A stretch of DNA of 64,000 bases. Source: Polytrichum commune (taxonomy: Eukaryota; Streptophyta; Polytrichopsida; Polytrichales; Polytrichaceae). The DNA lies in NCBI GenBank assembly GCA_950295325.1, contig OX485803.1:61643554-61707553 (forward strand), in the 5' to 3' direction. Numbering within the stretch: the stretch's first letter is position 1; every line of letters begins with the position of its first letter. The notes beneath the pieces were generated by a model, which saw only the letters and a list, made by a program, of their open reading frames with translations, was not told the origin of the DNA and did not search any database. Position numbers and translations under genes: made by a program. Of the stretch, positions 9,323-63,061 are shown piece by piece.

Positions 9323-9346
9323 ATGAATGAGGGCCCCTGTGCTTTA

Positions 9347-9843
9347 GGGCCACTTCACACACGAGCCAAGAGCCGTGACCATGAAATTGTGAGAGCCCAC
9401 AAGAAAGTGTCCAAAGGTCGTCCAACACACCTCCAAAACCATGGAGTGAGGGCATGGGTCCTCAAGTGTATTGTGAAGCCGTATGTAACCGGGCCCTCAA
9501 CCAAATGCTATTTCAATGAATTTCTATTCATATGGGTCCTCACACATGATAAAATCAAATAAATCAATGGATGTGAGCATTTGGAGTACCACGGTCTCCC
9601 TGTTTTGTGCTAGGCCTACTTCCAAGAGGTGGTTTTTGAAAATAATCCAAGTGACCACGATACATGATCCATTGGATGCCATGTAGGAATCCATGTAGAC
9701 TTTACATCCATATTGCACTCACTTACTCCGTTGGTCCCTCAAGCGTAGTGTGAAGCGAACTTGGACTGGCTCTGTCTTTTCCACCGATGAGAGTCCTTGA
9801 AGTTGATGGTCACAGGCTCTCAGTCTCGTGTGTGAAGTGGCCC
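9347..9843 (+). mobile_element. Harbinger-like MITE, family H1, copy 1
   Basis: A 497-bp element with perfect 19-bp terminal inverted repeats GGGCCACTTCACACACGAG and a TTA duplication on both sides (9344-9346 and 9844-9846). A 3-bp TTA/TAA target duplication and a GGG-starting terminal repeat are typical of PIF/Harbinger elements. The interior has no transposase. Copies at 35.5 and 44.4 kb are similar throughout, and one at 18.6 kb is inverted. Confidence 0.88.
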
Positions 9844-11459
9844 TTAGATGGGGCTCATGGGAAATTAAGGCAAGTGGAAGAATAGAGTAGAGGCGCCCAT
9901 AACCGATCACTCAAGAGATTTTACGCCAAATTTGGAGAAGTATAAGGCAATGTAATTTTTTTCCCCGTGTAGGAAGATAGAGATCACGAGAATTGCAAAA
10001 AATTGGGTAATTTTATTCTTTGAACTAAATCACCGTGATTTTTTGAAGCCAAAAGTTGCCTCAATATATTACCAATATGTAGAGTCTACCATAACCGCAC
10101 ATTTTAACTGCTCGTCCCTCCTTACTTCGGCACTCAAAGCCAAGACATGTGTCGTGGCACTATTGGTTCCGGCCCAATCAAAACTTAGTCCCAACCTTAT
10201 CAAAAATTTAATCCTAGTGTGATCGAAATTGTTGTACCCTAAAGATTGTCCGATGGGGTCTTGATCGGGAATAGGCGCCTCTACTATATACAAGGGGATA
10301 TAGTTCTTCCTGTAAATCTTCCTATACAATTCCTAATAAATTATGGTGATCAACTCGGGTTGAAAACTCTTAAATGTTCCTTGTTTGAGTATACTAGAAG
10401 GTCTTAAAGCGTTTCTTTGAGTTTCATCTTTTACAACTAAAGAATCTTCAAACATTTTGCTTTGCCGCGCCGCCTAGATGCACATGCTTATCTAAGCATG
10501 CTTTGTTCCTTTCACTACTTGTGTACTCCCCAAATAGAGTTAGACTCGAGAAAGGAATTCAGAAGTTTCTCAAAAAATTTACTCTTGGAATAGAAGCAAA
10601 TGGAGTTTGTTGCCTTGTTTTTTTAGGTCACTTACACAAATGCTGGAAGTGACAAAAATAGGAGATTCGTTCAAAATTGACATTTTTCTCATACCCACTT
10701 TTGGTGACTTTACGGTTAACATTAGTATCTCATATTCTTATTGTCAAGCTGAGAAAGAAGGTCAAAACTCCCAACACCAAAATGACACAAGAAGACATGG
10801 AGGTTACGAGAACAATGTTATGAATAATCGGCACTCCAAACGCGGGAAATAAGTTGGTGGGTGTAGCCTTGTAGGCGGGGGATGTGTTTTTTGCGACCTC
10901 AAACTTAGGATATGGTGGACTTTGAAACTCCACCTCAGCATCAAATTCATACGTATATATATAGAAGTGCCTTTGTCCAACGAACAAACATGCTTATGGG
11001 AGACTGAGCCAACGACCAATTCCAAATTAGGTGGAGGGTGCACCTCGAGATGGAGGCCCGCCACGAGGCAACTAACTTATGTTACTTGTCCTTATCTCCC
11101 GCCTCCATTAATGAACCCCCGCCCCCCATAGTACACCCTCCAACGTACCCCTCAATTTCACCATGTGTGTCCCTTGCAAACCTCTGTTGTCTTAAGATGT
11201 TGCAAAAGTTGGTAACTTAACCCCCCCCCCCTTTCTTCTTCAATTCATTTTAAGCAATTACCATCCATATGTGATGATATGGATTATATTGTTACGCTCT
11301 TTATTTGATTGGTGTCACTTGAATGATGCGTAAAAATAATGAAAAGTAGAAGTTGGTGGAAACTTCACATGAACAAACCAAACCCTCAGTTTGATAGCTT
11401 AGCTGGAGAGTACAACAACAATTTCAAGGATTATGTGGCCTCTATGCTTAATATGAATG
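9844..11459. other. intergenic, nothing recognised
   Basis: No gene is supported. A run of 11 C lies at 11221-11231, and the region around 11,040-11,160 is locally C-rich. Open frames here are short and carry no known motif. Confidence 0.5.
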
Positions 11460-12665: not shown

Positions 12666-13293
12666 GCATTACCCGTACATAGTATACATAAGGGGGAGGC
12701 ATTAGTTTTCTCTAGTGTGTCCATTTAAAAAGGTTATCAAGAATTATGAAGTAAAGGTAAATATACAAAACGGGGTTGTAAGGTTTAGAGAAAAAAAATA
12801 ATAATTAATGTGTTAGTTTCATCCAGTTCACATTTTTAGTCCATTTTTGTCATATGGTGAGTCCTTGATGACTACCATGTCCTTCCTTGTTAGGGTTTGC
12901 ATTTGAGTTCAAGGTTTTTAGATTGGAGCATTTGTCAATTCCCTTGAATTTTTCTCTATAGATTGTGGCTAAGTTAGCGTACTCTTGTCTTTGTTTGTTT
13001 GATACTATTGTTGAGTTACATCCTATGGGCTAAAAGTGTTTAATGGCTTTCTCATTGGAAAGTGAGAGTGCATTGTATGTGTAATAAAGGCCTATTAATT
13101 TCATGATTTATATTTTGTATATATAAAGGAGGAATTTTGTGATCTTAAATTAAAAATCTTGGGATAAATACATGAGTCCATTTTCTAGCCTACCATTACT
13201 ACGTACACGTTTGTTTTTCTCTATAAAAATTTTGTATATTGGGGATCTACTTTCTTAGTGACCCACACACATCATTTAGATTTCCAATTGATG
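12666..13293 (+). repeat. dispersed repeat R-A, copy 1
   Basis: This stretch of about 630 bp matches 48,199-48,833 in the same orientation along its length. Shared blocks include TGTCCATTTAAAAAGG (or TGTACATTTAAAAAGG), TATGAAGTAAAGGTA, GTTTCATCCA, GTAATAAAGGC and CATTTAG(A/G)TTTCCAAT. The right end lies in an open frame, but both copies are riddled with stops. The class is unknown. Confidence 0.65.
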
Positions 13294-18277: not shown

Positions 18278-18596
18278 TGGCCACTTCCCACACAAGCCAA
18301 AGGCCCCGACCATGTGATTGTGAGGACCCATGATTCTCACCCAAACATTGTATCATTAATATTGTTTGCCATATAATCTACATGAGGCCTACCTCTTAGA
18401 GGTGGATATTGATTCTAGTAGACCATGAAACCTTATTCATAGTATAATATGTAGGGAATCCATGTAGACTTTTCATCCATGATAATTTTCTTTGGGCTCT
18501 TAGGCCTTCACCTTCTAGTGTGAAGTGATCTTGGACGGTCTCGGCCTTCTAGACCAATGAGATATTAGAATCAATGGTCATGACCCTTGAATCTCA
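18278..18596 (+). mobile_element. Harbinger-like MITE H1, truncated copy
   Basis: It starts TGGCCACTTCCCACACAAGC after a TTA (18,275-18,277) and follows the H1 interior in diverged form. It stops where its own right terminal repeat should begin, exactly at the start of the inverted copy at 18,597. It is more diverged than the other copies. Confidence 0.65.
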
Positions 18597-19088
18597 AGGC
18601 CACTTCACACACGAGACTAAGAGCCCGTGACCATTACACTTCAAGCACTCCCATTGGTGGAAAAGGCAAAGCCGGTCCAAGTTCGCTTCACATTACGCTT
18701 GAGGGATTAACAGAGTATGTGAATGCAAGATGGATGTAAATTCTACATGGATTCCTACATGGCATCGAATGGATCGTATTCCATGGTCCCTTGGAATATT
18801 TTCAAATACCACTTCTTGAAGGTAGGCCTAACACAAAACCGGGAGACCATGACACTCCGAATGCTCACAATTCCATTTTCTCATGTGTGAGGACCCACAC
18901 GAATAAAAATTCATTGAAATAGCATTTGATTGAATGCCCGTCACATAGGACTTCAAACTACACCTGAGGGTCTGTGACCACACTACATGGCTTTGGAGGT
19001 GTGTTGGGATGACGGCCTTTGGACATTTTCTTTTGGGCTCTCACAATTTCATGGTCATGGCTCTTGGCTCGTGTGTGGAGTGGCGGCC
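18597..19088 (-). mobile_element. Harbinger-like MITE, family H1, inverted copy
   Basis: It begins AGGCCACTTCACACACGAG and ends CTCGTGTGTGGAGTGGCGGC, so both terminal repeats are present but mutated. The interior is the reverse complement of the copies at 9.35, 35.5 and 44.4 kb. The target duplication is not clean (TCA on the left). It abuts the truncated copy on its left. Confidence 0.75.
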
Positions 19089-22703: not shown

Positions 22704-23750
22704 CTACCCTCCTTTAGAAGCTAAAATATCTTGGATACGATTGTGCATGCTATGATAGAACTTTGGACGTTGCTTAGGAGTGATGGAATGGAAAGAAGTT
22801 TGTGCACGCTCCCGCAATTGAAGCATTCCTTTGGCTAGTGTTGGACACTTCTTTAATTTCCATCTCCCTAGTGCCCACACATGCTCGATTGGATTAAGGT
22901 TAGTTGATTGAGGAGGCCAAGTAAGTGCATCAAATTTTGCATTGGCAACCACTGCTTAACTAATTTTGTAATATATTTAGGATCATTATCATGTTGAAAC
23001 ATGACACAAGAAAGGTTGAAATGATACCATTTAATTATCCTCATGACCCCATCTTGAAGAATGCTAACATATAGAGCTTGTGTCATCTTCCCCTCTATCT
23101 TGCACATGTAATCCATGCCATGGGAAGTCATATAACCCCGCACAAAAATTGTATCAACTCCATGTTCAAGTGTTTGATTCACATAATGAGCTTGTAATTG
23201 AGGTTCTCCATCCCTCACCCAACACCAAGTGCGATCATTAGATTGAAATCGATTGATCTTAGTCTCATCACTAAAAATCACCCTATATTAATCACGAATA
23301 GTTCAATCTTGATGACGTTGAGCAAATTCCAACTTGCAACACACATTCTTGGTTGTGAGTAATGGATTTTTTTTGCTTCTCTAATGACCCAAGACATGCT
23401 TCATGAAGTGCATGCCTCACTGTGTTGGTGCTCACTGCTCACTACCACATTCGAGTGCTCACTCAAAGCATTCCTCGTGCTTATAGCATTATCTAGCCCC
23501 ACCAATTGTGATGGCTCTTACACACGCTCGTCATTGAGTAGGGGTGATGTTTTTTGTGCGCCCTCCGTTTGAAGGCTCCATATGAGGAACACACCCTTTA
23601 CAAGTCCCAGAATTTGTAGATTGAGAGATACCCAACAATTTTGACACTTCATGTGTGCTATGTCCATGCTACAATAGGGCTATAGCATTCAACCTCTTCC
23701 TCTGGTCATGCTCTCATGGGCAAAGAAAACCTTCATAGATGTAAGAGAAA
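22704..23750 (-). pseudogene. Tc1-like (DD34E) transposase, decayed
   Basis: Read on the minus strand, the parts appear in the order of a Tc1 transposase. First is a helix-turn-helix (RLNAIALL, HEVSKLLGISQST, about 23,600-23,720), then a second one near SVRNALSEHSNVVV-like sequence. Next come KLEFAQRHQD and IFSDETKINRFQSNDRTWCW (first Asp), QHDNDPKY (second Asp), and TWPPQSTNLNPIEHVWALGR with the catalytic Glu. The second Asp to Glu spacing is about 34, hence DD34E. The gene is broken by several in-frame stops (two where Trp is expected, just before IFSDET) and at least two frame changes. No intact copy or clear terminal repeats are in the window. Tc1-like DD34E elements are typical of animals and fungi, so a plant copy is notable. 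Confidence 0.85.
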
Positions 23751-35464: not shown

Positions 35465-35968
35465 GAGCCAAGGGCTTCACACACGAGCCAAGAGCCATGA
35501 CCATAAAATTGTGGATAGCCCAAAAGAATGTGTCCGAAGGCCGTCCCAAGGCACCTCCAAAATCATGTAGTGTAGTCACGGGCCCTCAAGTGTAGTGTAA
35601 AGTCATATGTACCGGGGCCCTCAACCAAATGCCATTTCAATGAATTTCTATTCATGCAGGTCCTCACACATGATAAAATAGAATAAATCAACGGTTGTGA
35701 GCATTTGGAGTGCCATGGTCTCCCGGTTTTGTGTTGGGCCTACCTCCAAGAGGTGGTTATTAAAAGTAATCCAAGTGACCATGAAACATGATCCATTCGA
35801 TGCCATGTAAGAATCAATGTAGACTTTACATCCATCTTGCATTCACATACTCCGTTGGTCCCTCAAGCGTATTGGGAAGTGAACTTGGACCGGCGCCACC
35901 TTTTCCACCAATGAGAGTGCTTGAAGTGTAATGGTCACCGGCTGTCAGTCTCGTGTGTGAAGTGGCCC
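35465..35968 (+). mobile_element. Harbinger-like MITE, family H1, copy 3
   Basis: The right end CTCGTGTGTGAAGTGGCCC is intact and followed by TTA (35,969-35,971). The left end is disturbed (GAGCCAAGGGCTTCACACAC) but preceded by TTA (35,462-35,464). The interior matches copies 1 and 4. There is no coding capacity. Confidence 0.82.
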
Positions 35969-36327
35969 TTACTCAAATAGCTTTTATGTATTTCATTAGT
36001 TTTTGGCATTTTTTTCTTCTTCTAGCAAATAACAATATTGGCAAACCTATCAATGCCCCCCCCCCCCCCCCCCAAGCCTGACAAGTGGGGCACAAGAAGA
36101 AAACTACAAGCTCACCGTACGTTCGAATGGAAGGCCTAAGTCACCCACCGTTCCTAGCTCCGTGCCTTTTGACGATGTCAAACTAATTGATTTTCCTGCA
36201 GCCCACGTGTATCACTCTTGCAAGCTAGGAGTAAATGATAGTGACATGGCCTTAGAATAAGAAGAGGAAAAAGGAACTACGGTGTTCATGGCATTCCATA
36301 CGACGCCGACACTAAATAGTCATGTTA
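35969..36327. other. intergenic with a poly-C tract
   Basis: C18 lies at 36,056-36,073. No gene is seen. Confidence 0.55.
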
Positions 36328-40161: not shown

Positions 40162-40495
40162 GGGGCAGCTAGCTGACTTGCTACCAGATACAACTCTGCT
40201 GGCCGAAGCCCAACTGGGGCAGCTAGCTTACTTGCTACCAGATACAACTCTGCTGGCCGAAGCCCAACTGGGCAGCTAGCTAACTTGCTACCAGATACAA
40301 CTCTGATGGCCGAAGCCCAACTGGGGCAGCTAGCTTACTTGCTACCAGATACAACTCTGCTGGCCGAAGCCCAATTGGGCAGCTAGCTGACTGGGCTACC
40401 AGATACAACTCTGCTGGCCGAAGCCCAACTGGGGCAGCTAGCTTACTTGCTACCATATACAACTCTGCTGGCCGAAGCCCAACTGGGGCAACTAG
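40162..40495. repeat. 53/54-bp tandem array, six units plus a partial
   Basis: Each unit runs from GGCAGCTAGCT to GGCCGAAGCCCAACTG and contains CTACCAGATACAACTCTG. Units 1, 3 and 5 start with GG and have TGACT or TAACT after GCTAGC. Units 2, 4 and 6 start GGG and have TTACT. The true period is therefore a dimer of about 107 bp, a higher-order repeat. A seventh, partial unit ends in CTACTGGGCC. An open minus-strand frame runs through several units, but unit lengths not divisible by three argue against coding. Confidence 0.9.
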
Positions 40496-40777
40496 CTAAC
40501 TCTACTGGGCCGGGGCAAATCTTGGATTAAGCTCGGGCTAAGCCTTGTTAGGCCTTCACTTAACGAATCAATACATAGTAACCTTAGCGGCCTCACCACA
40601 AATTAACCTTAGACCACAATAGATTATTTTAGAATATCTTAGGCCTTAGGTAAGTATTGGATTCATTAGGTTAGGTAGGGCATGTGTGATTTTTGAATGT
40701 ATTGGTGCTTGAACCATTGATAAAAGTGTTTTTCAACACTTGAACCTATTGGTCAAAATAAATCACTTGGATTACTA

Positions 40778-44000: not shown

Positions 44001-44432
44001 CTTGATATATATATATGCCACCAATTCAACAACTGCCAACAATAAACCAATAATTAATTTATTATTGGCTCATCCTACGACATACATGTGGACTTTGATC
44101 TTATCATATGATACTTGGAGGGGAATATTCCAAGACTTTATCAACAGGAACATGCCAATTCTAGCACCAACAGTATGAACATGCAAGTTTTGGGACTTTT
44201 GGGGGAAAAAAACTGACAATCATGGAACTTAAGGGCAATTTCCCACCCAGTGTTGTATGGAACTTCAAGGGTGCTTCTACTATATATAACAGGATTTGGG
44301 ACGCATGGTGAGTCCCGGAATGAATTGTAAATCAATTGTTACTTAAACCACAAAGAGCTTCAATTGTATATATGGGCTGCTTGTGGTACACCATGTTGGA
44401 GTTGGGTGAATGTGATTGCTGTTACTTAATTA

Positions 44433-44937
44433 GGGCCACTTCACACACGAGCCAAGAGCCGTGACCATGAAACTGTGAGAGCCCAAAAGAAAAGTGTCCA
44501 AAGGCCGTCCCGACACACCTCCACAATCATGGAGTGGGGTCACGGGCCCTCAAGTGTAGTGTGAAGTCATATGTGACCGGGTCCCTCAACCAAATGCTAT
44601 TTCAATGAATTTCTATTCGTGCAGGTCCTCACACATGATTAAATAAAATAAATCAATGATTGTGAGCCGTTCAGAGTGCTATGGTCTCCTAGTTTTGTGT
44701 TAGGCTTATCTCCAAGAGATGGTTTTTGAACATGGTCCAAGTGACCATGAACTATGATCCATTGGATGCCATGTAGGAATCTGTGTAGACTTTACATCCA
44801 TCTTGCATTCACATACTCCGTTGGTCCCTCAGGCGTAGTGTGAAGCGGCGAACTTGGACCGCCTCCGGCTTTTCCACGAATGAGAGTGCTTGAAGTGTAA
44901 TGGTCATGGGCTCTCAGTCTCGTGTGTGAAGTGGCCC
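44433..44937 (+). mobile_element. Harbinger-like MITE, family H1, copy 4
   Basis: A 505-bp element with intact 19-bp terminal repeats GGGCCACTTCACACACGAG and a perfect TTA duplication (44,430-44,432 and 44,938-44,940). The interior is closely similar to copies 1 and 3. It is among the youngest-looking copies here. Confidence 0.9.
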
Positions 44938-45096
44938 TTATGCACTACTACACAGCAGAGCACTTGTTTATGTGTTGGGTGTTGCATGGGGTCAGCATGC
45001 GAAGCTGATTTCCTCTCATGATATTGTGCAAAACTAAAATTATTTACACATTGACTGCTCAACTTATAGTTGATGTGTGTGATGAGTCTCGCTTTA

Positions 45097-49753: not shown

Positions 49754-50236
49754 GAGGCGGTTTACACTATGGACCATGAAGTCGTCCCACGGCCGTCTAA
49801 GCGATGTGATTGGACGTTGAAGTCGTCCCGGGACGACTTGGGTTTACACCAAGGAAAAAATGGCAGAGTGACCACGGAGGTTGAGGTCCACAAATTTGTT
49901 TTTTTAAGCCTGCTCTATCCACTGCCATGGTCCAACGGGTTTTCCGTTGGGACAAGCAAAAGAGGTGGTCTAGGAAAAATAGCAAGGGCCCATGTCAGAA
50001 AAATGCCGTTTTAATGATTTTTTTGGATTTTTTTAATGATTTTTTTTCCAACTTAGTTAATGACTCCACTTTTTGGTGCATGGTCATTCTTCATGGTCCA
50101 CATTCGGTTTACACCTAGTGAAGGGCCCACGAACCATGAAAACTAATATTTTAGTAACTCGGACCATGGAAGTCGTCCCACGCAAAATAGGCCTCTTACG
50201 TGGGACGATTTCATGGTCCATAGTGTAAACCGCCCC
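49754..50236. mobile_element. Harbinger-like MITE H3, just upstream of the patatin gene
   Basis: A 483-bp element with terminal repeats of about 36 bp. The left runs from GAGGCGGTTTACACTATGG to GAAGTCGTCCCAC, and the right is its complement with GGGGCGG at the tip. TAA flanks both sides (49,751-49,753 and 50,237-50,239). Inside is a perfect 20-bp palindrome AAGTCGTCCCGGGACGACTT (49,820-49,839). It ends about 256 bp before the start codon of the patatin-like gene, so it may form part of that promoter. Confidence 0.88.
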
Positions 50237-50492
50237 TAACTAACATGGACGGTGTAGGCCCGGGATGATAAACATGGGATGGATGAGGGGGGTAGAAAGT
50301 GGATGAAAAGCAGAGCAGCAGCCAGCCAGCGCCCGCCCGCCCGCCCGCCCGCCCGCCCGCGCGCGTCGGTCGCCAACAAATACAGGCTCTCGCACGAGGC
50401 AATGTTCTTCGGTGTCGACGACTCCCGAACGGCGATTGTTGTAGTTGGATCGCTGGTGCTCGAGTTGTAATCGGGTTCGGAGGAGGGTCGCC
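50237..50492 (+). promoter_or_regulatory. promoter/5' leader of the patatin-like gene
   Basis: A GC-rich stretch lies between the H3 MITE and the start codon, in contrast to AT-rich flanks. It contains a (CCCG)n run at about 50,331-50,366. No clear TATA box is seen, and the transcription start cannot be placed. With so little space, upstream promoter elements probably lie inside the MITE. Confidence 0.5.
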
Positions 50493-50627
50493 ATGCCGAT
50501 GGGGTTCATGGGGCAGCAGGCCAAGGGCCAGGTGGGCAAGCGCATCACCATCCTCAGTGTCGACGGCGGCGGGGTCCGCGGCCTCATTCCTGCCACCATC
50601 CTGGCGGAGCTCGAGGGCAAGCTCCAG
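50493..50627 (+). CDS. patatin-like gene, exon 1
   Basis: 45 codons, [12 protein letters not shown] to ELEGKLQ, with the glycine-rich DGGGVRG loop. The donor is CAG|GTACTC, phase 0. Confidence 0.92.
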
Positions 50628-53600
50628 GTACTCACTCGCAACATTCTCACCCCAACAATTGTCAGCTACGACCATGTACAAAACGTCTACAGCCTTCTGC
50701 AGGCATCCACCTAGTGCTTAGTGGGGAGAGTGACTTCTCTTAGTTGAGATTTGTGGGAGCAAATGCTGGGAGGTGGAGTGGAGGTGGACAGTAAGTAGGG
50801 GGAGCAGCACTGCAATGTGCACTAGAAATCAATTAGCACTAGAAATCAAGCCGGGATCAACAGTTGTCTAGAGCCTTCCCCAACCTCCTACAACCCCCTG
50901 CAGTGGGAGAGGCACCTTAGCTAAGGTTTGTGGGCCTGATAGTTTGTCGAGCATTGTGGTTCGATGGTGGGGGTTTCTTGTTGGGCGGAGAGTAACGGAC
51001 GCGGTACTGTGATGAGATCCGGATGAGTTAGCACTAGAAATCAAAGTGATTTGAGCAATTGCCTAGAATCTTCTAGAGCTGCAGGCAGGCATCCATCATC
51101 TAGTGCTAGCTAGTGGGAGAGATGACTTAGATTTCTGTACCAGGAAGAGGGATTGGGTTGTGGGAGCACTGTGATAATTTAGCATCTGAGTCGGTTAGCA
51201 GTAGTTAGGATGTATGATGATTGTTGTGGGACTTGATGGAGTTGAGGACTATTCTAGGATTGAATGATTGGATTCTTGGTGGAGGTGAAGGTGGATGTTC
51301 TGGTTCAGAGAGGCTGTGTGAAAATGTGGATGAGAATGGGGGATGTAATGCAGAAATACGTGTTTGCGGTCAAAGAGTTTCAGGTGTGGGTTGTCAGTGG
51401 GTTTCAGTTGTTGTTGAGCAAGTTCTGGGATATGCGTCCAAGTGGGGGATTGTAGTTTTCCAGCAGTCGTCTTGGCTGTGTAGGATTTGTGAGTCATGTT
51501 GTGCGTTGAAGAACCCAGGTAAATTCGGAATTAGTTGTTGTGCTGCTGATCTGCACCTAGCTCGGAGGGATGGATGAAGAAATCCCTTAATTGAGCTGTC
51601 TGTCTAAGTGGATAGTTTGGTTGGAATCTTGGGAGCACCAGAGCACTGCCAATCTAGGTGGGAAATATGAACTTTTTTCAGGCTGGGTGTCAGAATAATG
51701 TTGCAGGTCTTTGTACCTAATCCCAACAGGCCCCTCCGTACTGAGTTTTACAAGACTCCAGGAAAATACCTCAGTTCCTTTCGAAATAAAAATGTAGGAC
51801 TTCTTTTTTTCTTTCTTTGTTTCACATGTGTCGAATCTCAGGACAATTACTCGCAGGCCACGTGTTGTTTTGGATTTCCTCCGTGCTCAAATCACCAATG
51901 ATCACTGTTTCTTTCCCGGTGATGCAGAGACTTGCAGTGCTTCGAGTGTGGTCAAGTAAGAGTGATTAATTTTTCAGGATAGAATTAGAGATGATGTAGG
52001 TTCCAATTGCAGTTCTGCAAGTTGCCGCAATACAATTGATGCACCACAATCACAAGCCCCAGCATGTACATTTAGCACTTTGCACTGCTCACCTTTCGGC
52101 GAGATTAGAAAACATGAAGAAAATGGTTCAGAACAAATATTGGTGCTTGTGTGATATTCTGCAGTGTGATATTCTGATGTACAACTATCTCTAGATATGA
52201 GTAAGCAAAGCAACTCACCAAGTCGCTTTTCCCATTCCTCTTGACCCAGTCGTCAGGCTGATCTGATTCGGTGCTGGACAAGGCCCACACATATTGAGCC
52301 ACAAATATCTGTTCCAAGTTTCCACCATCCAACTTCCCTGCACTGATTGGGGATAGAAGCCAGGACAGGGTCGATGTCAACTCATTAAAATACTGTTACA
52401 GCAGAAGAATCACATTGATTCCTAAGAATCTTTATCACAGTAAGTAAATCACAGCACGAAAGCTTTCTGGAAGGGAGGTTTTTGACAGCTGTCCTTTCGT
52501 TTTCAGATTTGTACTGTTATACTTCTTATGCCAAGCCACAAATGAAGTCTGAAATCCACAACCACTTTTGTGAAGATTGTAAACATTGTGTGTATATACT
52601 CCATAGAATTACAAAGGCCATCGGCATTGTTTACCAAGCCCTCAGTTATTGCACTCCATAGAAGAGAGATCGTCACCATTCATCCTCAGAGATTTGGATA
52701 GCGATTATGATCTATTGGACTATTTCTAAAACCTAGCATTCGGGAAGATGGGTCACTGAATTCCATTAAGAATCAGATTCAAATGCTGATGCCCCGATCT
52801 GTCTCTGTTGCCTACACTGACTGTCATTGATATTTTGCATGTGAAGGTTATGATTTATCCATGTGTGAGGTCCAGAATGCCGGGAATTTAAGAATGAGGG
52901 ATATGAAAAATGCAATCTCTAGTGCATTTCACTGATATGCATATTTTTGCGACAGAGAATTGATGGGCCAGAAGTCCGGTTGGTAGACTACTTTGACATC
53001 ATTGCGGGCACCAGTACAGGTGGTCTTATCACCTCCATGCTCGCAACACCGAGCAGTGACAACTCTGACCGTCCGCTGTTTACAGCAAAGGATGTCGTGC
53101 ACTTCTACCAAAAACATGCCAGCAAAATCTTCTCCCAAAACAGGTACTAATGATTTTTTTCCCTAACCTCATTTCATTGCATGAGCTACAAATCAATCAC
53201 CCTCTAACTTCACAAAATCTTGAACCAGAATCTTATTGAAAGGGAAAATATTGATGCAAACAAGGGGGTGGGTGGGGTGCATAGAGGACCATTTGGGCAG
53301 ACAAGAAGGGGTTTCATGTCTTCTGGGCCCAAATACAAGCCACGTGGATTGCAACGCCTGCTGGACCAGTACTTTGAGAGCAACCCACATCTCGACCGAG
53401 CGCTCACATCAATTATTATCCCTACTTTCGACACCAAAATCCAACAGCCTGTTATCTTCTCATCCTGGAAGGTGTGCACAAAGTAGCTACCAATACATAT
53501 GTATTTGTCAATCTGAAATATAAGATTTCTATCTTATAAGGTAGGCATACCCAAACCCAAAACCAACACTGTATTACAATTATACATTTGAACTCCCCAT

Positions 53601-56600
53601 ATGTACGACCTTGGTACATAGTGTTGCTTTGGGGTATACGTATCTTACACCAAAAATTGAACTTCTGAATTATACGCAACAGATTCAAAAAGCTGCACCT
53701 CATGCTCTGTACTTGATGAGGAAGGAGGGTCAAAAATGACCATTGTCAAGCAATTTGTCTTGTGATCATTTTTATATCATGGATAAAAAAATGTAAACAG
53801 CTGTGCGCTCTAGTCTGCCCTCATCAATGTGCAGATCGCAATGATTGTGTAGGCAGTCATTCAATATAATGATATGTCACTAATTTGTGTGGAAGTCTGG
53901 ATTATGTTGAGCTAAATTGGATGTTTGTCGCAACTTTAGGCAAAGAGGGAGCCTCTTGATAATGCGCCCATCAAAGCAGTGTGCCGGGCCACAACAGCAG
54001 CTCCCACTCTCCTTCCACCTGTTCAATTCACCCTGACAGATGTCAGTCGGGAACCCCCTCAATCACGTGAATTCAACTTGATTGATGGAGGTGTGGTCGT
54101 GAACAACCCGGTAAGCTCCAATTCCAACATTATCTTTCTCTTTGTCAGCATCTAGTAAACTTCACACAGCACAGAATTAACGAAATGGGGATAAGGAAGA
54201 GGAATATTCATCTTCATGATGCCTTCAAACTCTTTGATCTGGGAGCTTAAGTGGTTTGAGGATTAATAACTGGAAATAACCCATTAAAGTGATATGATGG
54301 GCAAGCAGGTATTACCAGACTCAATGCCTGCAGAATAGGGTTTGCCAATAAAGAACTCTAATAAAGATCACATGAAAAATGCGGAGTCAAATCAAATTTA
54401 ACTATATGTATGTGTACAGTAGTTTAAGAAATTGGAAAGTTTTTGTCCTTTATATTCATCCTAATGTGTGGGAGTGGCTTGGTGAATGACTTCAAGCCAC
54501 ATTGACATTGATGTTTCACTGTTTAGTTGTCCTTTTCATTTCTGAGGTAAATTTCATTGTAGCAATTACTCACGGCGGGTAAGTCCAATATGGGTGGAGC
54601 AGACATACTTGGCGATCACACAGGCGGTCAAGGAGGTCCAAACGGGAGGCCCACTGGCAGAACGAGTAGACTACTCTGTGAGTACCCTATTTGCTTGAGA
54701 AATACGTAACCACCTGCTAGTGGCTGCACAATATGTAGAGAACTGCCTCAAATTATCACCAAGTGGTGCATGGGCCATGATGGCCTGGCTGATGACTGAA
54801 TACTTTTGCAGTTTTTTGATTGCTTACGCGTCTATTAGATGTTCTCATACTTGAGCTGGGTTTAATCACATGTAGACGTACAGCGATATCTTGGTACTCT
54901 CCCTGGGGACAGGCCAGCATACGACTGGCTATGATGCCAAAGAAGTCGCGAGATGGGGGGCCAAGGATTGGTTGACCAACAGGGGCGAGGTGCCCTTGGT
55001 GGACATGGTTTTCAATGCCAGTGCGGAGATGGTGGACTACAACCTCTCCATCATCTTCCAGTCCCAACAATGCTCTTCAAATTATCTCCGTATTCAGGTA
55101 CCTATTTATGATGACCTACATTACCTTGCATGCCTAAAAAACATGAGATCATATACAAAATTGCAGAATCTAGAGGAAGCTGCTAAGATGTTGGGTAAAT
55201 CACAAAGAGTCAGCGGCAATGATCCGTGATCCGTGATTTGTGATTTGGACACCTAAATTCTATGTTGTAGTGGCAGAGAACCAGTAGAAACAACCGGTAA
55301 TGTTTGTAGTGAAAGAACACACCACATTCCATATATGCAATATCTAATTGACTCAGGGATCACTACAAAAGGGAAGAATTGCTTAGGAATCATCTTATTC
55401 CTCTTGGGCTTGCTTGGTATCATATTGTGCACCCGAGAGAGTTGGCACCCTCTCTCTTTTGGGTCCTGGTGACCTTCTATGTTTGTTTGACAATGAAATA
55501 AAGTGTTTCATTTGTCGCAAAACGAAACCAATCAAATCAAATCAACTGGAAGGAATGCTCAGGTGAGTCCAGTGTGGGTGACAAGTTAATTTTGGTGTTC
55601 AAATGCAGACTGACAACTCCAATGGACCTCTCGCATCTGCCGATGACTCGTCAGAGACAAACTTATGGAAACTGATGGCCACTGGGAAGCACCTCCTGGA
55701 TGAGCCGGTGTCGGAGCGTGACTTTGAAACGGGAAGACTAACCTCTATTCCTCACAGTGGCACCAACCGAGAAGCCCTCTACAGGTAGGTTCCCAACATA
55801 AGTAACTTAATACCCGGTGGTTCAGGAGGGAGGGATTGCTTGCTTGCTTGTTGTCATCATCAATGTCCAAAGGACCTTGGTTTTACGTTGTGAACTCCAC
55901 CAAATGTCACCACTTGCGACTCACCGGCAGCTGCTCGGGATCTTCAAAGAACCCTGAAACTCTTTACACCAAGTAAAACTCGATCTTAATAGTACTTGTT
56001 TAGTGCTGCTATCGCAAACCAATCACGCAGGTCTTAGAAAGTACATCTGGGCCTCCAAGGGTTGATGAACTCTTTGTGCTTTGTTAATCACAGATTCGCA
56101 GAGTGGCTATCGGAGGAGCGGAAGACGCGAATCGCAAACGCCCCTCCCCCTCCCCCACCCCCCGTGGAAGCCCCTGCCCCTGTGGTCGTGGAAACCCCCA
56201 GTGAGCCCGGCTCTCCGCCCGCTGAGGAGGCCCCCCCCGCCCCCACCCCCACCCCCGCAGCAGAGGAAGAAGCCAAGGCGGAAGAGCAAGCCGCTGCTGC
56301 TGCCCCTCCTGCGGAAACCAAAGCCGAAGAGACCACCCCCGCCGCCGAAGAACCCCCCGCCGCCGCCGCCGCTCCCGAGGAGGCCACCCCCGCCGCCGCG
56401 GCCGAGGAGAAGCTCGGCGAGGATGCGCCCGCAGCCGCAACGACGACCGAAGAGAAGGCGAGCGCCTACATGACGTTCCCGTACGTGCCCCGGAGCGCGT
56501 ACTATGAGGGCCCCTTCCACACCCGTCGGATCGACTCCTCATCCTACGCCCCCTATAGCACGGACCCCGCCTACGGGTCCTCGTATACCTCAACCCCCTC

Positions 56601-57162
56601 CTCCCGCAACTACTACTCCGACTCCTCCTCCTACAACGCCGCCTCCTCCTACAACTCCGCCTCCTCCTACAATGCCGCCTCCTCTTACACGGCGTCCTCG
56701 TACATGCCCTCCCCGTTCGAGGAGACCCACCCCCCGGCGAAGTCCTCGTATTATACGCAGCCCCGGTATGCGTCCTCCTCGTACGCGGAGCCCCGGTACG
56801 CAGCGTCCTCGTATGCGTCCTCGTACACGGAGCCCCGATATGCGGCGTCCTCGTACGCGTCCTCGTATGCGGGCGAGCCCAAGTACGCCCCAGACACCTC
56901 CGTGCGGGCCTCGGCGTACGAGCGGCCCGCGTACGAGTCCTCGTACACCTCGTACGCGGTGCCTGAGCCCACCCAATACACGGAATACGGGGAGTCCTAC
57001 GCGACGCCCGAGCCCTCCAGCTACACGTCCTCGTACAGCGAGGCATACTCGTCTTCGTACTCCTCGTATTTGTCGTCGTATGCGAGGGTGGAGTCGAGAT
57101 CGAATGGAGCCGCCACCGGCACCTCGAACGCGTACCCGGACCTGTTTGGCTTCTTCTCGTAG
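50493..57162 (+). CDS. patatin-like phospholipase with long C-terminal extension
   Basis: Eight exons joined by GT-AG introns: 50493-50627, 52956-53143, 53285-53471 (or from 53243), 53940-54110, 54603-54677, 54876-55097, 55609-55784 and 56094-57162, giving about 740 residues. The family hydrolyses acyl groups of galactolipids and phospholipids with a Ser-Asp dyad. Seen here are the oxyanion loop DGGGVRG (24-30), nucleophile Ser65 in GTSTG, Asp219 in LIDGG followed by VVNNP, VLSLGTG, YLRIQ, and the usual end [11 protein letters not shown] near residue 387. Plant relatives normally stop soon after that. This protein goes on for about 345 residues, first Pro/Ala/Glu-rich, then Tyr/Ser-rich. No signal peptide is evident, so it is probably cytosolic or membrane-associated. 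The start codon has a good context (GTCGCCATGC), and the N terminus has the usual length. The exon 3 acceptor is uncertain; both options keep frame. Confidence 0.93.
50694..51150 (+). repeat. three diverged tandem units inside intron 1
   Basis: CTGCAGGCATCCACCTAGTG..TGGGGAGAGTGACTT, CTGCAGTGGGAGAGGCACCTT and CTGCAGGCAGGCATCCATCA..TGGGAGAGATGACTT recur about every 180-190 bases. Each of the first two is followed by TTAGCACTAGAAATCAA. This is an old internal duplication of the intron. Confidence 0.55.
52219..52392 (-). other. exon-like antisense segment in intron 1
   Basis: On the minus strand, an acceptor with pyrimidine tract (TTCTTCTGCTGTAACAG) and a donor (TTG|GTGAGT) enclose exactly 174 bases. 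They are open for 58 codons in phase 0, starting [16 protein letters not shown] and ending KRNGKSDL. The amino-acid composition looks protein-like, and Trp and Gly codons are well spaced. I do not recognise the family, and no partner exon was found nearby. It could be a gene fragment carried into the intron or a chance frame. Confidence 0.3.
52956..53143 (+). CDS. patatin-like gene, exon 2
   Basis: From [20 protein letters not shown] to KIFSQN; carries the GTSTGG nucleophile elbow. Acceptor GCGACAG|AG, donor ACAG|GTACTA, leaving two bases of a split Arg codon. Confidence 0.92.
53285..53471 (+). CDS. patatin-like gene, exon 3
   Basis: It encodes [20 protein letters not shown] through [13 protein letters not shown] is a family landmark. 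Two acceptors fit the phase: CATAG|AGG at 53285 (chosen, since it gives the usual spacing) and GAAAG|GGA at 53243, which adds 14 residues and has the better pyrimidine tract. Donor GAAG|GTGTGC. Confidence 0.75.
53940..54110 (+). CDS. patatin-like gene, exon 4
   Basis: 57 codons, [20 protein letters not shown] to [11 protein letters not shown], including the catalytic Asp in DGG. Acceptor TTTAG|GCA, donor CCG|GTAAGC. Confidence 0.93.
54603..54677 (+). CDS. patatin-like gene, exon 5
   Basis: 25 codons, [16 protein letters not shown] to RVDYS. The short exon continues the conserved NNP-T-LA segment. Acceptor GAGCAG|ACA, donor TCT|GTGAGT. Confidence 0.88.
54876..55097 (+). CDS. patatin-like gene, exon 6
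   Basis: 74 codons with the conserved [10 protein letters not shown] and the end NYLRIQ. Acceptor TGTAG|ACG, donor CAG|GTACCT. Confidence 0.93.
55370..55545 (+). repeat. dispersed repeat R-E copy in intron 6
   Basis: Resembles 11,460-11,615; GGTGACCTTCTATGTTTGTT followed by GACAATGAAATAAAG marks the A-rich 3' side. Confidence 0.45.
55609..55784 (+). CDS. patatin-like gene, exon 7
   Basis: 58 codons plus two bases. It contains [20 protein letters not shown] and ETGRL, followed by GTNREALY, all landmarks of plant patatin-like proteins. Acceptor ATGCAG|ACT, donor ACAG|GTAGGT. Confidence 0.92.
56094..57162 (+). CDS. patatin-like gene, exon 8 with low-complexity tail
   Basis: 355 codons and stop. 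After [12 protein letters not shown] the frame enters a Pro run and about 105 residues rich in Pro, Ala and Glu, then about 235 residues of Tyr/Ser-rich sequence. The latter includes SSYNAAS repeats, three near copies of (A/T)EPRYA(A/S)SSYA, and many SSY steps, ending DLFGFFS. No membrane segment or known domain. It is very GC-rich with G/C-ending codons, unlike the other exons. Long frames in the other registers and on the antisense strand are by-products of this composition. Confidence 0.9.
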
Positions 57163-57964
57163 ACCCGTTTATGATCGATCTTTTATCCTGGTAATAACGC
57201 TTTTATTATGTTATTATTATGGGGGGGGGGGGTGAAGCGGAATGGGATACGGAAGGGACCTACCCAATTTAGAAGTTATACAGATCGTTGAGAAGACAGG
57301 TTCTTAAGTAAGTAGAGACACATATGTGATTTATTAGGGTAAAGAGTCACATGAGTATAGGCCCTACTAACATGTATACTACATAGCAATAAGCTCATGT
57401 GTTAGGGACGACGGGTTGGATTGAGCCCGGAATACTTCTTCACTAACTTATACGTAGGATCACTAGTAGGTCCAGGAGTCTCAGCAATAAGATGTTGTAA
57501 TCTATAGGAGTAATAAAGTATGTGGTCTGGGTCGTAAGGCCTCCATATTTTACTGACCTAAAGATGTGTGTCATCTGGTTTGCTCACTCTTCTCAATTGG
57601 GGGAGTTGTATTTGAGTGGTATATGGCAAGGCTTGTAGTCGAGTATGGATAGATGTAAAGACATGTGTTAAGATGATGTTGAAATAAAATAAAAATAAAT
57701 GGGGGGAGGGGGGGGGGCGCAATCTTCCTTACCTTGATCGTGCTTGATCAAGCTCCTTGCATTCGAAGGTAGGCTCCTTCCGTGGCATGATCGAGTTTGG
57801 TGGGTCCACAGGGGGTTGTTTGTGTTCGAGATTTCATTTGTTTAAAACTAGATATGTGAAATATTGTATGGAGATCAGGTGTACATGATTCATGGTTTTT
57901 TTTAAATAAAATAAAATGAAATTCATTTGAAGGTATGTTGAGGTTTTAATGCTTATATTTCTTA
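57163..57964. other. 3' flank of the patatin-like gene
   Basis: No canonical AATAAA lies close to the stop; TAATAA and ATTATTATTAT occur within 60 bases. G12 follows at 57,221-57,232 and another G-rich run at 57,701-57,717. A fragment of repeat R1 (GAGTGGTATATGGCAAGGCT) lies at about 57,612-57,680. No gene is seen. Confidence 0.5.
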
Positions 57965-58485
57965 TGCCCCCTTCCCACCTGACTTTAGTTAAGACCCAAA
58001 GTATTTCCTAAAAACCGGGTAAAGCTCCCTCGGTTATAGCGGAGGCATCCGACTATCCCAATGCACCTACAAGAACTTGCTCCGGAGATTTTCAAGTAGG
58101 TTTTAGTTAAGTAGCTTTCACACATGTTCATGGTTTTATCTACCAAGTAATGAATGTTGGGTAGTTTTTGCCCCATCCCCAAATGCCTTACTACTCACCT
58201 ATCTTACCATCGGTTTTTGTTAATGGGGCTCCTCGTGCCCTCATAGCTAAGACTAAAAAGCAACCAACCACAAGGGTGGGAGGCGACACTTTTAAAGCTC
58301 CTATATTCTTGCCTCATGTTTAGGTACCGATGGGAGGGTCGGTGGTTGAGGCTTAAAACCTCCACTTTTAAGCCATGCCACATCATTTGCCAACTAGGCT
58401 CGGCATTAGATAATGTCGATGGTGTGAAGGCCGGTTTGTTAGAACCAACTTTTGGTCTTAGCTAAAGTCAGGTGGGAAGGAGGCA
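57965..58485. mobile_element. Harbinger-like MITE, family H6
   Basis: A 521-bp element with terminal repeats of about 35 bp. TGCC(C/T)CCTTCCCACCTGAC is followed by TTTAG(T/C)TAAGACC at both ends, and TTA flanks both sides (57,962-57,964 and 58,486-58,488). No coding capacity. It lies about 800 bp after the stop codon of the patatin-like gene. Confidence 0.85.
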
Positions 58486-59576
58486 TTACTCATGGTCGGT
58501 TCCTCTTACGCCAATTATAATGGTGATAAGGGGGTTCACCTTCCACCCTGCAAATTCGAGTGTCTGGATGAGTGGGTTGTACTTGTTGGGTTTTTCTTTG
58601 GTGGCAGTGGTGGCAAATCTATCATGGCAATATGTGAATTCTATGAACTGGATATTATTTGGTGGGGTTGAACTTAATGATGGTTGACCATCATTGGGGG
58701 CTCCTAGTATACATAGGATATTTAGTCACATACAGGCCATGCATGTACATGGGGGTGGGGAGGCATGTGCATTTTAGTAACCGATTTGATACCCTTATAT
58801 CTTGATGTTGAGAGTTTGATTTCCTAAATTAATAATATTGTAGAGTCTTGTGTGTTTGGTTCGATTGAAGTGTATGTATTGTTTGATGGATGGCTTAATT
58901 ATGGCGAGCTCTGCGGAGTCTTTTTATTTGTTGGTTTGAGCATATGGACAACTATTGTGACCATATGTTAGTTGCGTTGTTTGAGCACAATGCACATTTC
59001 AAATTTGGATGTGTAAGTGGCTAGAAGATGTTTTTTCACTAGTTGCCCATGTATTGGATGTAGCGGAATTTTAGTGTTTGTGTGATTTGTACAAAGAATA
59101 GGCCAAGGGCCTTCCATAAGTGGTTGGATGGTTCATGGTGATTTGGTCATTGGAGACCCATTTGTCTACGTATGCAAATTTTTGTTTGGGCAAGGGTTGG
59201 TTCAACGTTTGTGTGTGTGTGTGTGTATGGGTGAAACAAACCTCTCACAGGTTTGTCACCAACTTTCATAGTAACACTTATCAATCAAAACGATTAGTTG
59301 AAGAATTCAACTTATTTTCCTTGTAACGTCAAATTACAATTGTAGACCAAGTAGGTCTTGGTCTAAGCTCAACCACCCGACCATAGGAGAGAGATCAAAA
59401 AGATCCTCTCCCCTCCCCCGAGCTTCCTCTTATGCCACATGCACTAATTCTACTTCTATTTTCACATATAATAAAAGTATTATATTCATAGCTCTATCTC
59501 TTACTACTATTATAAATCTTCTATCTTTGGTTTTTTTAGAACCTTCAGCCATCTTTTAATTCAATCTCATTCTTCC
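58486..59576. other. intergenic, nothing recognised
   Basis: A (GT)n run lies near 59,209-59,227. No gene is supported. Confidence 0.5.
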
Positions 59577-59985
59577 AGTTGGAACTGTCTAATTCCAACT
59601 AGATTCATCTATCCTTCCTTCTAGTTGGAACTGTCTAATTCCAACTTGATTCATCCTACCATTCTTCTAGTTGGAACTGTCTAATTCCAACTTGGTTCAT
59701 CCAACCATTCTTCTAGTTGGAACAATCTAATTCCAACTAGATCTATCTATTCATTGAGAGTTGTCTAATTCCAATAAATAACATTCATCTTTCCAATTTT
59801 GGAGTGATCTAACTCCACTGCACCTCATCGAGAGCTATCTAACTCATGTGCACATGTTCTCAATATGGAATGGTCTAATTCCAATGCACTAAATGCGGAG
59901 CTATCTAACTCCAGTGCACATGTTGTCAATCTGGAGTTGTCTAACTCCAATCCATCCATCTTCAATTGGGAGTTGTCTAGCTCCC
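59577..59985. repeat. tandem array of 11 hairpin units with covarying stems
   Basis: Units 1-4 repeat every 46 bases. Each contains AGTTGGAA, an 8-base loop ending TCTAA, then TTCCAACT (arms at 59,577/59,593, 59,623/59,639, 59,669/59,685 and 59,715/59,731). Seven further units at 30-43-base spacing keep the TCTA loop but change the stem: TGGAGT/ACTCCA (59,800), TGGAAT/ATTCCA (59,866), TGGAGTT/AACTCCA (59,932), GGGAG/CTCCC (59,968). Units near 59,757, 59,832 and 59,897 pair less well. There is no coding frame through it. Confidence 0.85.
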
Positions 59986-61285
59986 GTCATCCTCTGCTTA
60001 CACATTGGCACATGTGGTTAGAATATTCAATCATTCATCAAAATTTCTAGTTACCTTACAGTGTGTGTGTGTGTGTGTGTGTTTTATTTATTTATTATTT
60101 AATTAGTTTTTATATTTTATATTTTATATTTTGAGGGGGGGAGGGGGAAGAGGGTTTATTAAAGCATATAGCTTTTGGATGTGTCCTTAATGTTCTCTTG
60201 TTGGGACTCCATTGGAGCCAATATGGTGTGGTATGTGCTACGTGGATGTGAGGTTGGTATTGTCATTTGCTAACCCATTGGCTATTTGATTCCATATGAT
60301 GATGGCAACCAGTATGCGCTCTAATTTTTTGTCTTGTTATCTTATGATTTGGTCAACTATGTCCAAGATGACTACTTTATCATGATGGTTATGTTGGATG
60401 AGGGGTATCTTATTTGGTTATTTATGAGGTATATATTGTATTATTGAGGTTGTACATGCAAATGAAGATGTCGTGTCTATAGTATTCATGTTGCATATGG
60501 ATGTGGAAATGGTGTTTAGTTTATTTTGAGTATGTTGAGTAGTCCGGGGAGTTTTTTTGACATATGGAGGTCATAGTTTGGGTTGTAGACTCCAGATCCA
60601 ACAACATTACCAATGCCATGTTTGTCTAGAGGGATGAATGAGTTGTTCATGTATACGCACATTTATGATTTATGTTTAAAGGGGTAAGTAGTATGTAGTG
60701 TGTTAGATAAGGGAGGTATATGGTTGTTGTTTGCAACATTGGTGGCTTTTGAGCTTGTTCTCCATTTCTTGGTGAATTTGATTTTGTATACAAGGGGCAT
60801 GCCGTGCATGTGGTTCGGTTGAACAAGCACATTGTGGAGTTCAAGCATGATAGTTGTGAGTGTGTTTAAGATTTGTTGAGACTTCTTTGGTTGTCAATAC
60901 ATAAGATGGTTATCTAATTGGGTTCATATGTGTGTAAGTATATATTTTGGCTATATGGGTGTAGGGTTGTACTTGATGGTATTTGGTGGGATGGTAAGGA
61001 TTGTATCTACATCTTTGTGGTGCATTTGGAAAGTGGTTTTTTTGCTCAGTAAGACTATAGTTACATTCTTGATGCCTTTGTTACAGCCATTCATGCCCAA
61101 TGGATTGTTGCTATTGCGAGATTGAGGTATGGATGGTGGGTTGGTCCCAAGGATTTCATGTCAATATTCGTCACGTTGCGCCATGTCCTATGATGGTAAC
61201 CTAACATTGGACCCAAAAATGTCATATGCCAGGAGGAACAATGCCAATACATTCAATGAATAATGTTGCTATGAGTAGTGCCAGG
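59986..61285. other. intergenic, nothing recognised
   Basis: A (GT)n run lies at about 60,060-60,082 followed by TTTAT repeats and a G-rich stretch near 60,134-60,152. Numerous short frames without motif. No gene is supported. Confidence 0.5.
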
Positions 61286-61450: not shown

Positions 61451-63061
61451 TGATATTGGAGATGGGCCAACAATGAAGGAGATTGTTTATTTTTGGCTCC
61501 CCATATCATGTCGAAGTTATCGAAGCACGTCTAGACAAGATGAACAACAACAATCAGGGGAAAATATGGATTTCCAACACCTTCTCATCCAGTCTTGTCA
61601 AGTAGAATATGTTTTCCATGGTCATGACATACATAGCCAAAATGTTGTTTTTCACCGGGCAACATCGAGCCATGTTGACTGCTATGGAATAAAATGTGAG
61701 AGTTGACATCACATGAATTTTGGAATATCAAAACATTATTATTGCAAATGTGGTGCTTGGAGGGCAACCGACTCCAATTGCAAAGACAGCGGCAACTCTC
61801 TCCTTGTCCACATACACATATGATTCACTCTAGTTTGGGCGATGTGGTCGTCTAACATCCTCCACATATGTTGTGCCCCTATTGTGGCAAAAATAGTTGC
61901 ATGGACTTTGTACATGCTGATTGTGCCCGCTTATGTGCTTATGTTTTCTAGATGGTTGGCATCATTGTTGTTATGAATAAGGTTGGAATGTGCCAAATGC
62001 TATGCGCATTTCTTTCAATTTTTTTCTCTTATATCACTATTGTCATTACCATCAACTACTCCGCAACCGTTTTACAACATTTTTGTGCGGCACATCCATG
62101 TGCACAAGGTTACAATCTACTCTAACCATATCTGCATCAATATGATTGCAATTACCCTAGCAAATCCTTCCCTCGCCATTTGGGCTCCATATGTTACTAT
62201 GCATTGTGTCCAACTGTACAAATGTTTTCTTCAAGCATTTCGATGTCTATCATCCTCAATGTAGATTGCAATAACCATTTTCCACGAGTACATGTGAATG
62301 AAAAAATATACCATTTGCTTAGATATTGCAAGCATCCACTTTATTTATACATTTATAGCCATACATGCATGGATGTATATTTAAGAAATAAAAATACACA
62401 CATAGAACTTGCAAACAACAATACAACACATCTTTGCAAATATCATGTGTGCCTTTAAATTCTTAAACACATGTTCTACTGCTTTCTATTAGTGTTGCAA
62501 AATACCCCATGGTGGTCACTGTCAAAATTTTACTAAACCACGTGAGAAAGAAATATAGGGTACATTTATTTCATTGGAGCAAAAATTTATGCAAATTTTG
62601 GAAATACCACAGCTTGGATGAAATGGCCCATATAATTACAAATAAAACAGGGTAGGTGAAAAATGTAGGTAATATTTTTTAACCAATAAAATAGAGTCTA
62701 TAATATTTGGAGGAATGAAGAATTTATGTGAGGTCCAATGAAAGTCTTTGGATTGGATGACAAATCGTCTCAATTGACGAAGAGTCATCGAAATTAGTCA
62801 TTGGCTATGGATGAACCAAAGATGAACCGAAAGTTGAATTATTTGACTTACGGGAAAAGTCTCCTCGTGACAAATCTAGCATCAGGTGACTGATGAGGTT
62901 CACGAATTAGGGCGGGGTGGTGGCGCCGCAAAGCTTCCTCTCACAACACCATTTCTTAATTTCACAACACCCTACCATCGGAGCTTGCATTTAGGGTTTC
63001 AGTTTTGGATGATCCTAAGAACCCTGTTGTTTGATTCTGAGCAATGATCAGGGAGGATTTT
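61451..63061. other. intergenic, nothing recognised
   Basis: Short frames only. Around 62,900-63,000 there is a slightly GC-richer patch with GCATTTAGGGTTTCAG, but no frame to go with it. No gene is supported. Confidence 0.45.

What the first reader, a model, noticed from the sequence alone, without database searches (positions are those of the whole stretch)
59577..59985. Tandem hairpin array whose stems covary
Eleven units, four of them in exact 46-bp steps, each form an inverted repeat around a conserved TCTA(A) loop. Between units the two arms change together: TGGAAT/ATTCCA becomes TGGAGT/ACTCCA (A-T to G-C), and TGGAG/CTCCA becomes GGGAG/CTCCC (T-A to G-C). The loop stays the same while stems vary, so pairing rather than sequence seems to be kept. 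This could be a structured RNA array, a protein-binding DNA cruciform array, or arms equalised by hairpin-templated repair during replication.
Basis: seen in the sequence. Interest (0 to 1): 0.75.

Follow-up and report, generated by a model that had tools for sequence, protein, structure and literature searches.

The report
Palindrome array in a transposon relic
A run of eleven short mirror-image DNA motifs in a plant-like genome sits inside what looks like an inserted 837-base transposon remnant (most likely a lone LTR), so it is probably the element's own switch region rather than a new RNA gene.

Summary
The array is real: 11 same-strand units (59577-59985), TCTA in 11 of 11; the core pattern exceeds all 100 shuffles (which sees 10 of the 11). 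Covariation is real but modest: it rests on about three paired changes, units 5 and 7 are broken, and the innermost pair fails in 6 of 11. A tree-based null gives P 0.003-0.02 for double differences but 0.07-0.18 for the number of doubly changed pairs. The larger finding is the setting: the array fills half of an ~837-bp block (59224-60060) of opposite skew to its immediate neighbours, abutting (TG)n on both sides, reading TGTATGG...CCTTACA, with three more hairpins left of the array. Best reading: a transposon insertion, most likely a solo LTR, whose palindromes are regulatory boxes like those of Sirevirus LTRs (PMC2829016). Sirevirus membership is not supported: no CGG-CCG core, no CpG island. 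Orientation is unresolved, and the LTR assignment needs other copies, which no collection here could supply.

The parts
59224..60060 (.). inferred inserted element, most likely a solo LTR (TGTATGGG...ACCTTACA), inside a (TG)n tract; orientation unresolved
   Evidence: best-fitting base-composition segment 59234-60059 within 58300-61250; skew reversal; ends; no second copy in the window
59210..59226 (+). left (TG)n tract abutting the element; overlaps its first bases, so the exact end is ambiguous
60061..60082 (+). right (GT)n tract abutting the element
59236..59256 (.). hairpin, 8-bp perfect stem, 5-nt loop
59296..59312 (.). hairpin, 7-bp perfect stem, 3-nt loop
59343..59365 (.). hairpin, 9-bp perfect stem, 5-nt loop
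59386..59411 (.). imperfect hairpin (10 bp with one bulged base, AAAAA loop)
   Evidence: seen in sequence; in the predicted fold
59577..59741 (+). units 1-4 of the palindrome array, 46-bp steps, perfect arms of 8 bp (11 bp in unit 4) around an 8-nt loop
59753..59985 (+). units 5-11, steps 44, 30, 36, 30, 36, 36 between their starts, degenerate; units 5 and 7 broken, unit 9 without its outer pair
59511..59517 (+). TATAAAT, the only perfect TATAWAW on either strand of the block; about one would be expected by chance (hand estimate, no call), so weak

Best explanation
The array is the palindromic repeat region of an inserted transposable element, most likely a solo LTR of 837 bp (59224-60060) that landed in a (TG)n microsatellite. 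A 46-bp unit was multiplied in tandem inside the LTR; other units have shorter spacers and have diverged, while the 18-bp palindrome with its TCTA centre was largely kept. In the living element the palindromes would be DNA sites bound by a host factor that drives transcription (enhancer boxes), and the same sequence, when transcribed, would fold into hairpins. Shown: the palindromes, their excess, the composition edges, the extra hairpins. Inferred: that the block is an insertion, that it is an LTR, and that the motifs are regulatory.
For: The best composition segment within 58300-61250 is 59234-60059, within 10 bp of both (TG)n edges. GC skew is +0.22 to +0.43 in the eight 200-bp windows starting at 58401-59101, -0.19 to -0.56 in the six starting at 59301-59801, and +0.24 to +0.56 in the ten starting at 60001-60901, as if the two flanks had once been one piece. 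TG...CA ends with 6 of 8 bases inverted-repeated. Hairpins (perfect stem of 7 or more, loop 3-10): 8 of the window's 65 fall in 836 bp, 0.35 expected, 0 of 200 shuffles; 5 of the 8 are array units, and the 347 bp left of the array alone hold 3 against 0.16 expected, 0 of 200. Fold z -8.6 (+) and -7.4 (-), 20 shuffles each. Precedent: 13 of 21 Sireviruses examined carry 8-32 palindromic repeats per element (3-14 of them in the 3'LTR), most LTR copies starting 200-400 bp from its start and spanning 300-500 bp (PMC2829016, parts 2 and 3). Palindrome regions of maize Sireviruses are reported as small-RNA hotspots (passages of PMC5311732 and PMC10760457).
Against: No second copy of the block in 64 kb and no whole genome held, so the edges rest on composition. 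The skew also changes sign nearby without an array (-0.04 to -0.14 in windows starting at 57901-58201; mostly negative, to -0.42, at 62001-62401). In a coarser scan of 41 stretches (12 best printed) the block scores 51.5, close to its right flank (51.4) and to 50161-50920 (50.2), and well below the exon at 56.1-57.0 kb (103.8). The terminal inverted repeat is the best of 20 TG...CA combinations near the edges, so 6 of 8 is not surprising, and the left TGT may be microsatellite. The duplication GTGTG is uninformative in (TG)n. If the LTR lies on the minus strand no perfect TATA follows the array (only 2-mismatch ones); on the plus strand the perfect TATA lies upstream of the array, which would put it in R-U5 instead of U3.
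Confidence: 0.5

Rival explanations
1. The block is another kind of element (non-autonomous DNA transposon, foldback or Helitron derivative) whose palindromes are transposase-binding sites or hairpin ends.
For: Hairpin-rich block without a recognised protein; the TG...CA evidence is weak. The window holds a four-copy ~500-bp family with terminal inverted repeats, so such elements occur here.
Against: No inverted repeat between the two ends of the block; the inverted matches reported were all within the array. No Helitron-like end seen by eye (CTAG at 60047-60050 lacks a GC-rich hairpin before it; criteria recalled). The array is in one orientation only.
Confidence: 0.2
2. A plain degenerate minisatellite seeded by a palindrome, in which the arms stay matched because replication or repair copies one arm from the other (quasi-palindrome template switching); no function.
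For: Tandem 46-bp and 66-bp repeats; decay in units 5, 7 and 9. Mutations that extend identity between arms of imperfect inverted repeats, attributed to template switching, are reported in yeast (start of the abstract of PMC3820800 in a search listing). Palindromes were proposed to help start plant minisatellites (passages of PMC2820488).
Against: Does not explain the extra hairpins outside the array, the composition block around it or the asymmetric invariant TCTA.
Confidence: 0.17
3. A structured RNA (leader or small-RNA precursor) whose stems are conserved by selection on pairing.
For: Strong folding; more double differences than a tree-based null (P 0.003-0.02), and more Watson-Crick cells (P 0.01-0.07 for 8 pairs, 0.0003-0.03 for the 5-bp core).
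Against: No Rfam match at gathering score; the innermost pair does not covary; neither strand clearly pairs better; the number of doubly changed pairs is not significant.
Confidence: 0.08
4. A repeat-encoding protein exon (E-L-S-N-S on +, E-L-D-N-S on -).
For: Units 6-11 are spaced by multiples of 3 and lie in open stretches of 80 aa (+) and 53 aa (-).
Against: Units 1-4 are spaced by 46, so the frame shifts; a TGA lies in frame in unit 6 on + (by hand) and a stop ends the 53-aa stretch on -; no Pfam match up to E 1 for either.
Confidence: 0.02

Closest known systems
Palindromic repeated motifs (RM) of Sirevirus LTRs (Ty1/copia; PMC2829016)
   Same: Clustered palindromic copies in a TG...CA LTR with divergent spacers and short arms around a few bases; here 11 copies over 409 bp of 837 bp
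   Different: Motif core is GGAA/TTCC or GGAG/CTCC, not CGG-CCG; no CpG island; the block is shorter than 18 of the 21 LTRs in the paper's table; the array begins 75 bp (minus reading) or 353 bp (plus reading) from the start, against 200-400 bp there; no genes, PBS or PPT found beside it
Tnt1 box I and Drosophila copia 5'UTR activator (named in PMC2829016, part 4, as symmetric regulatory sequences)
   Same: Symmetric DNA boxes near an LTR promoter; copia's lies in the 5'UTR, as here if the element is on the + strand
   Different: Fewer copies (recalled); no sequence relation tested
Palindrome-associated sugar-beet minisatellite BvMSat05 (PMC2820488, passages)
   Same: Palindromes linked to tandem arrays in plant DNA
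   Different: There the palindromes flank the array on one side; here each unit is one

Membership tests
LTR (solo) of an LTR retrotransposon | TG...CA ends with short inverted repeat | tested here: inconclusive
   TGTATGGG / TGTAAGGT, 6 of 8, best of 20 TG...CA combinations near the composition edges; left TGT may be microsatellite
LTR (solo) of an LTR retrotransposon | 4-6 bp target-site duplication | tested here: inconclusive
   GTGTG on both sides, but both flanks are (TG)n
LTR (solo) of an LTR retrotransposon | second LTR or other genomic copies | tested here: inconclusive
   none in the window; whole genome not held
Sirevirus LTR | cluster of palindromic repeats in the LTR (3-14 in the 3'LTR, at least 8 per element, in 13 of 21 elements of PMC2829016) | tested here: met
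   11 units, two of them badly broken; rests on the block being an LTR
Sirevirus LTR | CGG-CCG core in the repeats (12 of 13 in PMC2829016) | tested here: not met
   core is GGAA/TTCC or GGAG/CTCC in the intact units
Sirevirus LTR | CpG island over the repeats (most of the 13) | tested here: not met
   CpG observed/expected 0.27 in the block; 2 CpG in the 409-bp array
Sirevirus LTR | TATA box shortly after the repeats | tested here: inconclusive
   minus strand: no TATAWAW, only 10-mers with 2 mismatches at 59539 and 59491 after the array; the perfect TATA is on + upstream of the array
Sirevirus LTR | AGGGGGAG PPT and ATTGGTATCAGAGC PBS at the junctions | tested here: not met
   octamer only at 12691, 30535, 50797 and (reverse) 56144; no PBS with fewer than 3 mismatches reported. 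Both would be missing beside any solo LTR
Sirevirus LTR | polyC-rich integrase signal near the LTR end | not tested
   sequence of the signal not in the text read; one search shows no run of 4 or more C near either end
Structured RNA family | match to a curated RNA family | tested here: not met
   0 Rfam matches at gathering score in the window

The most novel reading that the evidence does not exclude
The element lies on the + strand, the TATAAAT at 59511 is its promoter, and the hairpin array is therefore transcribed as the R-U5 leader of a retrotransposon RNA. Its stems would then be kept by compensatory change, for packaging, translation control or as a source of small RNAs, unlike the palindromes upstream of the TATA box in Sireviruses.
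Probability: 0.12. Interest if true: 0.5.

Novelty: new variant of a known kind. Interest (0 to 1): 0.3.

Why it matters
If it is an LTR cis-region, it would be a palindrome array of the Sirevirus kind without the CGG-CCG core. That would help test whether the symmetry itself or the CpG-rich core is what such arrays are kept for, and whether paired arms arise by selection or by template switching. As it stands it is one relic, probably of a common class, and of modest interest.

Tried and rejected
Coding repeat: rejected (frame shifts, in-frame stop, no Pfam match). Rfam RNA: none. Second copy or LTR partner in the window: none. Exact 20-mer in viral contigs and exact 24-mer in prokaryote genome contigs: 0 matches each; a plant sequence was not expected there. 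Primer-binding site: TGGTATCAGAGC and its complement gave one 2-mismatch hit each, at 24117 and 54928, far from the block; the longer ATTGGTATCAGAGC gave only 3-mismatch hits, one of them (59872, minus) inside the array. Helitron ends: not seen, by eye only. Literature: searches; two searches returned 0 papers. I do not claim from these that nothing is in print. The paper on palindrome evolution in maize Sirevirus LTRs (Genome Res. 2016) is not held and is known here only through passages of two later papers.

Tree-based test: neighbour-joining tree of all 11 units from the same 26 columns, three assumed root sequences, two rate models, 3000 simulations each. The tree uses the tested columns, and the statistic counts pairs of units that differ on both sides of a Watson-Crick pair, so the P values are rough. 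Identical rows were counted once (10 of 11 rows). The 5-bp core was chosen after the data had been seen.

Full report
What is there. The window looks like plant DNA (inference): a reading at 54876-55226 matches patatin in the PDB (E 6.3e-7), and the patatin motif GGGVRG occurs in the reading at 50445-50711 (motif recalled; Pfam gave no match to either). No genome is held for it. Between 59577 and 59985 lie eleven same-strand units, with starts of the 18-bp core at 59580, 59626, 59672, 59718, 59756, 59800, 59830, 59866, 59896, 59932 and 59968. Units 1-4 step by exactly 46 bp and have perfect 8-bp arms (11 bp in unit 4) around an 8-nt loop. Units 5-11 step by 30-44 bp and are degenerate; units 6-7 and 8-9 form two 66-bp copies, 76% alike.

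Is it more than chance? Yes. The pattern gives 32 matches with up to 3 mismatches, against 11.6 expected and at most 21 in 100 shuffles. Ten of these are array units, 7 are the same sites read on the other strand, and 15 lie outside; unit 7 is too diverged to be counted. All 8 matches with 0 or 1 mismatch are in the array. In the 18-bp core 8 columns are invariant, among them TCTA, while none of the six columns on either side is.

Do the stems covary? Partly. For the 8-bp stem on the + strand 75% of cells pair (1 of 500 shuffles), the covariation score is 0.253 against 0.150 (3 of 500), and 3 pairs have double changes (212 of 500); sliding the partners by one column also gives 3. On the - strand 80% pair (0 of 500), the score is 0.281 against 0.224 (39 of 500), and 3 pairs have double changes (175 of 500). 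A 5-bp core chosen after seeing this gives 92%, 0.329 against 0.150, and 2 doubly changed pairs (201 of 500). Pair 4-13 is A-T in units 1-4, G.T in unit 5, G-C in units 6, 7, 9, 10 and 11, and A-T again in unit 8; pair 0-17 becomes G-C in unit 11. Against this, pair 5-12 is C.A in six of eleven units, and units 5, 7 and 9 have broken outer pairs. A simulation on a tree of the units gives P 0.003-0.02 for double differences and 0.07-0.18 for the number of doubly changed pairs. So the signal is real but rests on about three events.

The setting. GC skew reverses around the array: +0.22 to +0.43 in the windows starting at 58401-59101, down to -0.56 inside, and +0.24 to +0.56 in the windows starting at 60001-60901. 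It also changes sign at 57.9-58.2 kb and 62.0-62.4 kb, so a reversal alone is not proof of an insertion. The best-fitting segment of 58300-61250 is 59234-60059. In a coarser scan of 41 stretches the block scores 51.5, next after the exon at 56.1-57.0 kb (103.8) and close to its own right flank (51.4) and 50161-50920 (50.2). Both edges coincide with (TG)n tracts. With the microsatellite trimmed the block reads TGTATGGG...ACCTTACA. It also holds three perfect hairpins left of the array, where 0.16 are expected (0 of 200 shuffles), so that 8 of the window's 65 hairpins fall in 836 bp; control stretches held 2 (58300-59200, reached by 7 of 200 shuffles) and 0 (60085-61200). Folding energies are far below shuffles on both strands (z -8.6 and -7.4, 20 shuffles each).

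Interpretation. A block with TG...CA ends, dense in palindromes and set in a microsatellite, is best read as a solo LTR. Palindromic repeat clusters are known in LTRs: in PMC2829016 (parts 1-4 of 7 read) 13 of 21 Sireviruses carry 8-32 copies per element, 92% of the 3'LTR copies lying in its upper half, upstream of a TATA box, with a regulatory role proposed but not tested. Passages of PMC5311732 and PMC10760457 say that the palindrome regions of maize Sireviruses are small-RNA hotspots and probably cis-regulatory. The array here works like these in layout. It is not shown to be one of them: the CGG-CCG core and the CpG island were tested and not met, the TATA position is inconclusive, and the PPT and PBS signals are absent, as they would be beside any solo LTR.

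Limits. The inverted ends and the GTGTG duplication are weak evidence because of the microsatellite. Orientation is open: the only perfect TATA motif (59511, +) would make the array part of R-U5, whereas the minus reading gives the Sirevirus-like order but has only 2-mismatch TATA-like sites after the array. Function is inferred throughout. Without other copies neither the LTR assignment nor the cause of the paired changes (selection, or template switching as in PMC3820800, start of abstract) can be settled.

Noticed in passing
9344-9849, 18591-19084, 35475-35971, 44430-44940: Four copies, 84-88% alike, of a ~500-bp family (second copy inverted); the first copy shows ~40-bp terminal inverted repeats. 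Looks like a MITE family.
   Followed up: no
40162-40501: Tandem array, period about 54 bp, copies 93-96% alike in self-comparison.
   Followed up: no
50445-57162 +: Patatin-like gene (PDB match E 6.3e-7 for 54876-55226); an open stretch at 56038-57162, perhaps its last exon, encodes a long tail rich in P/A/E and then SSY repeats; no Pfam match.
   Followed up: partly
22871-23287 -: 139-aa reading that looks by eye like a decayed Tc1-type DDE transposase; Pfam gave only a weak match to another family, below its cut-off.
   Followed up: partly
57221-57232, 57701-57717, 60133-60154: G-rich runs (12 G; GGGGGGAGGGGGGGGGG; GGGGGGGAGGGGG) downstream of the patatin-like gene.
   Followed up: no
58400-59200 and 60085-61000: The two flanks of the block share strong G and T excess on the + strand, as if one T/G-rich sequence had been split.
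   Followed up: partly
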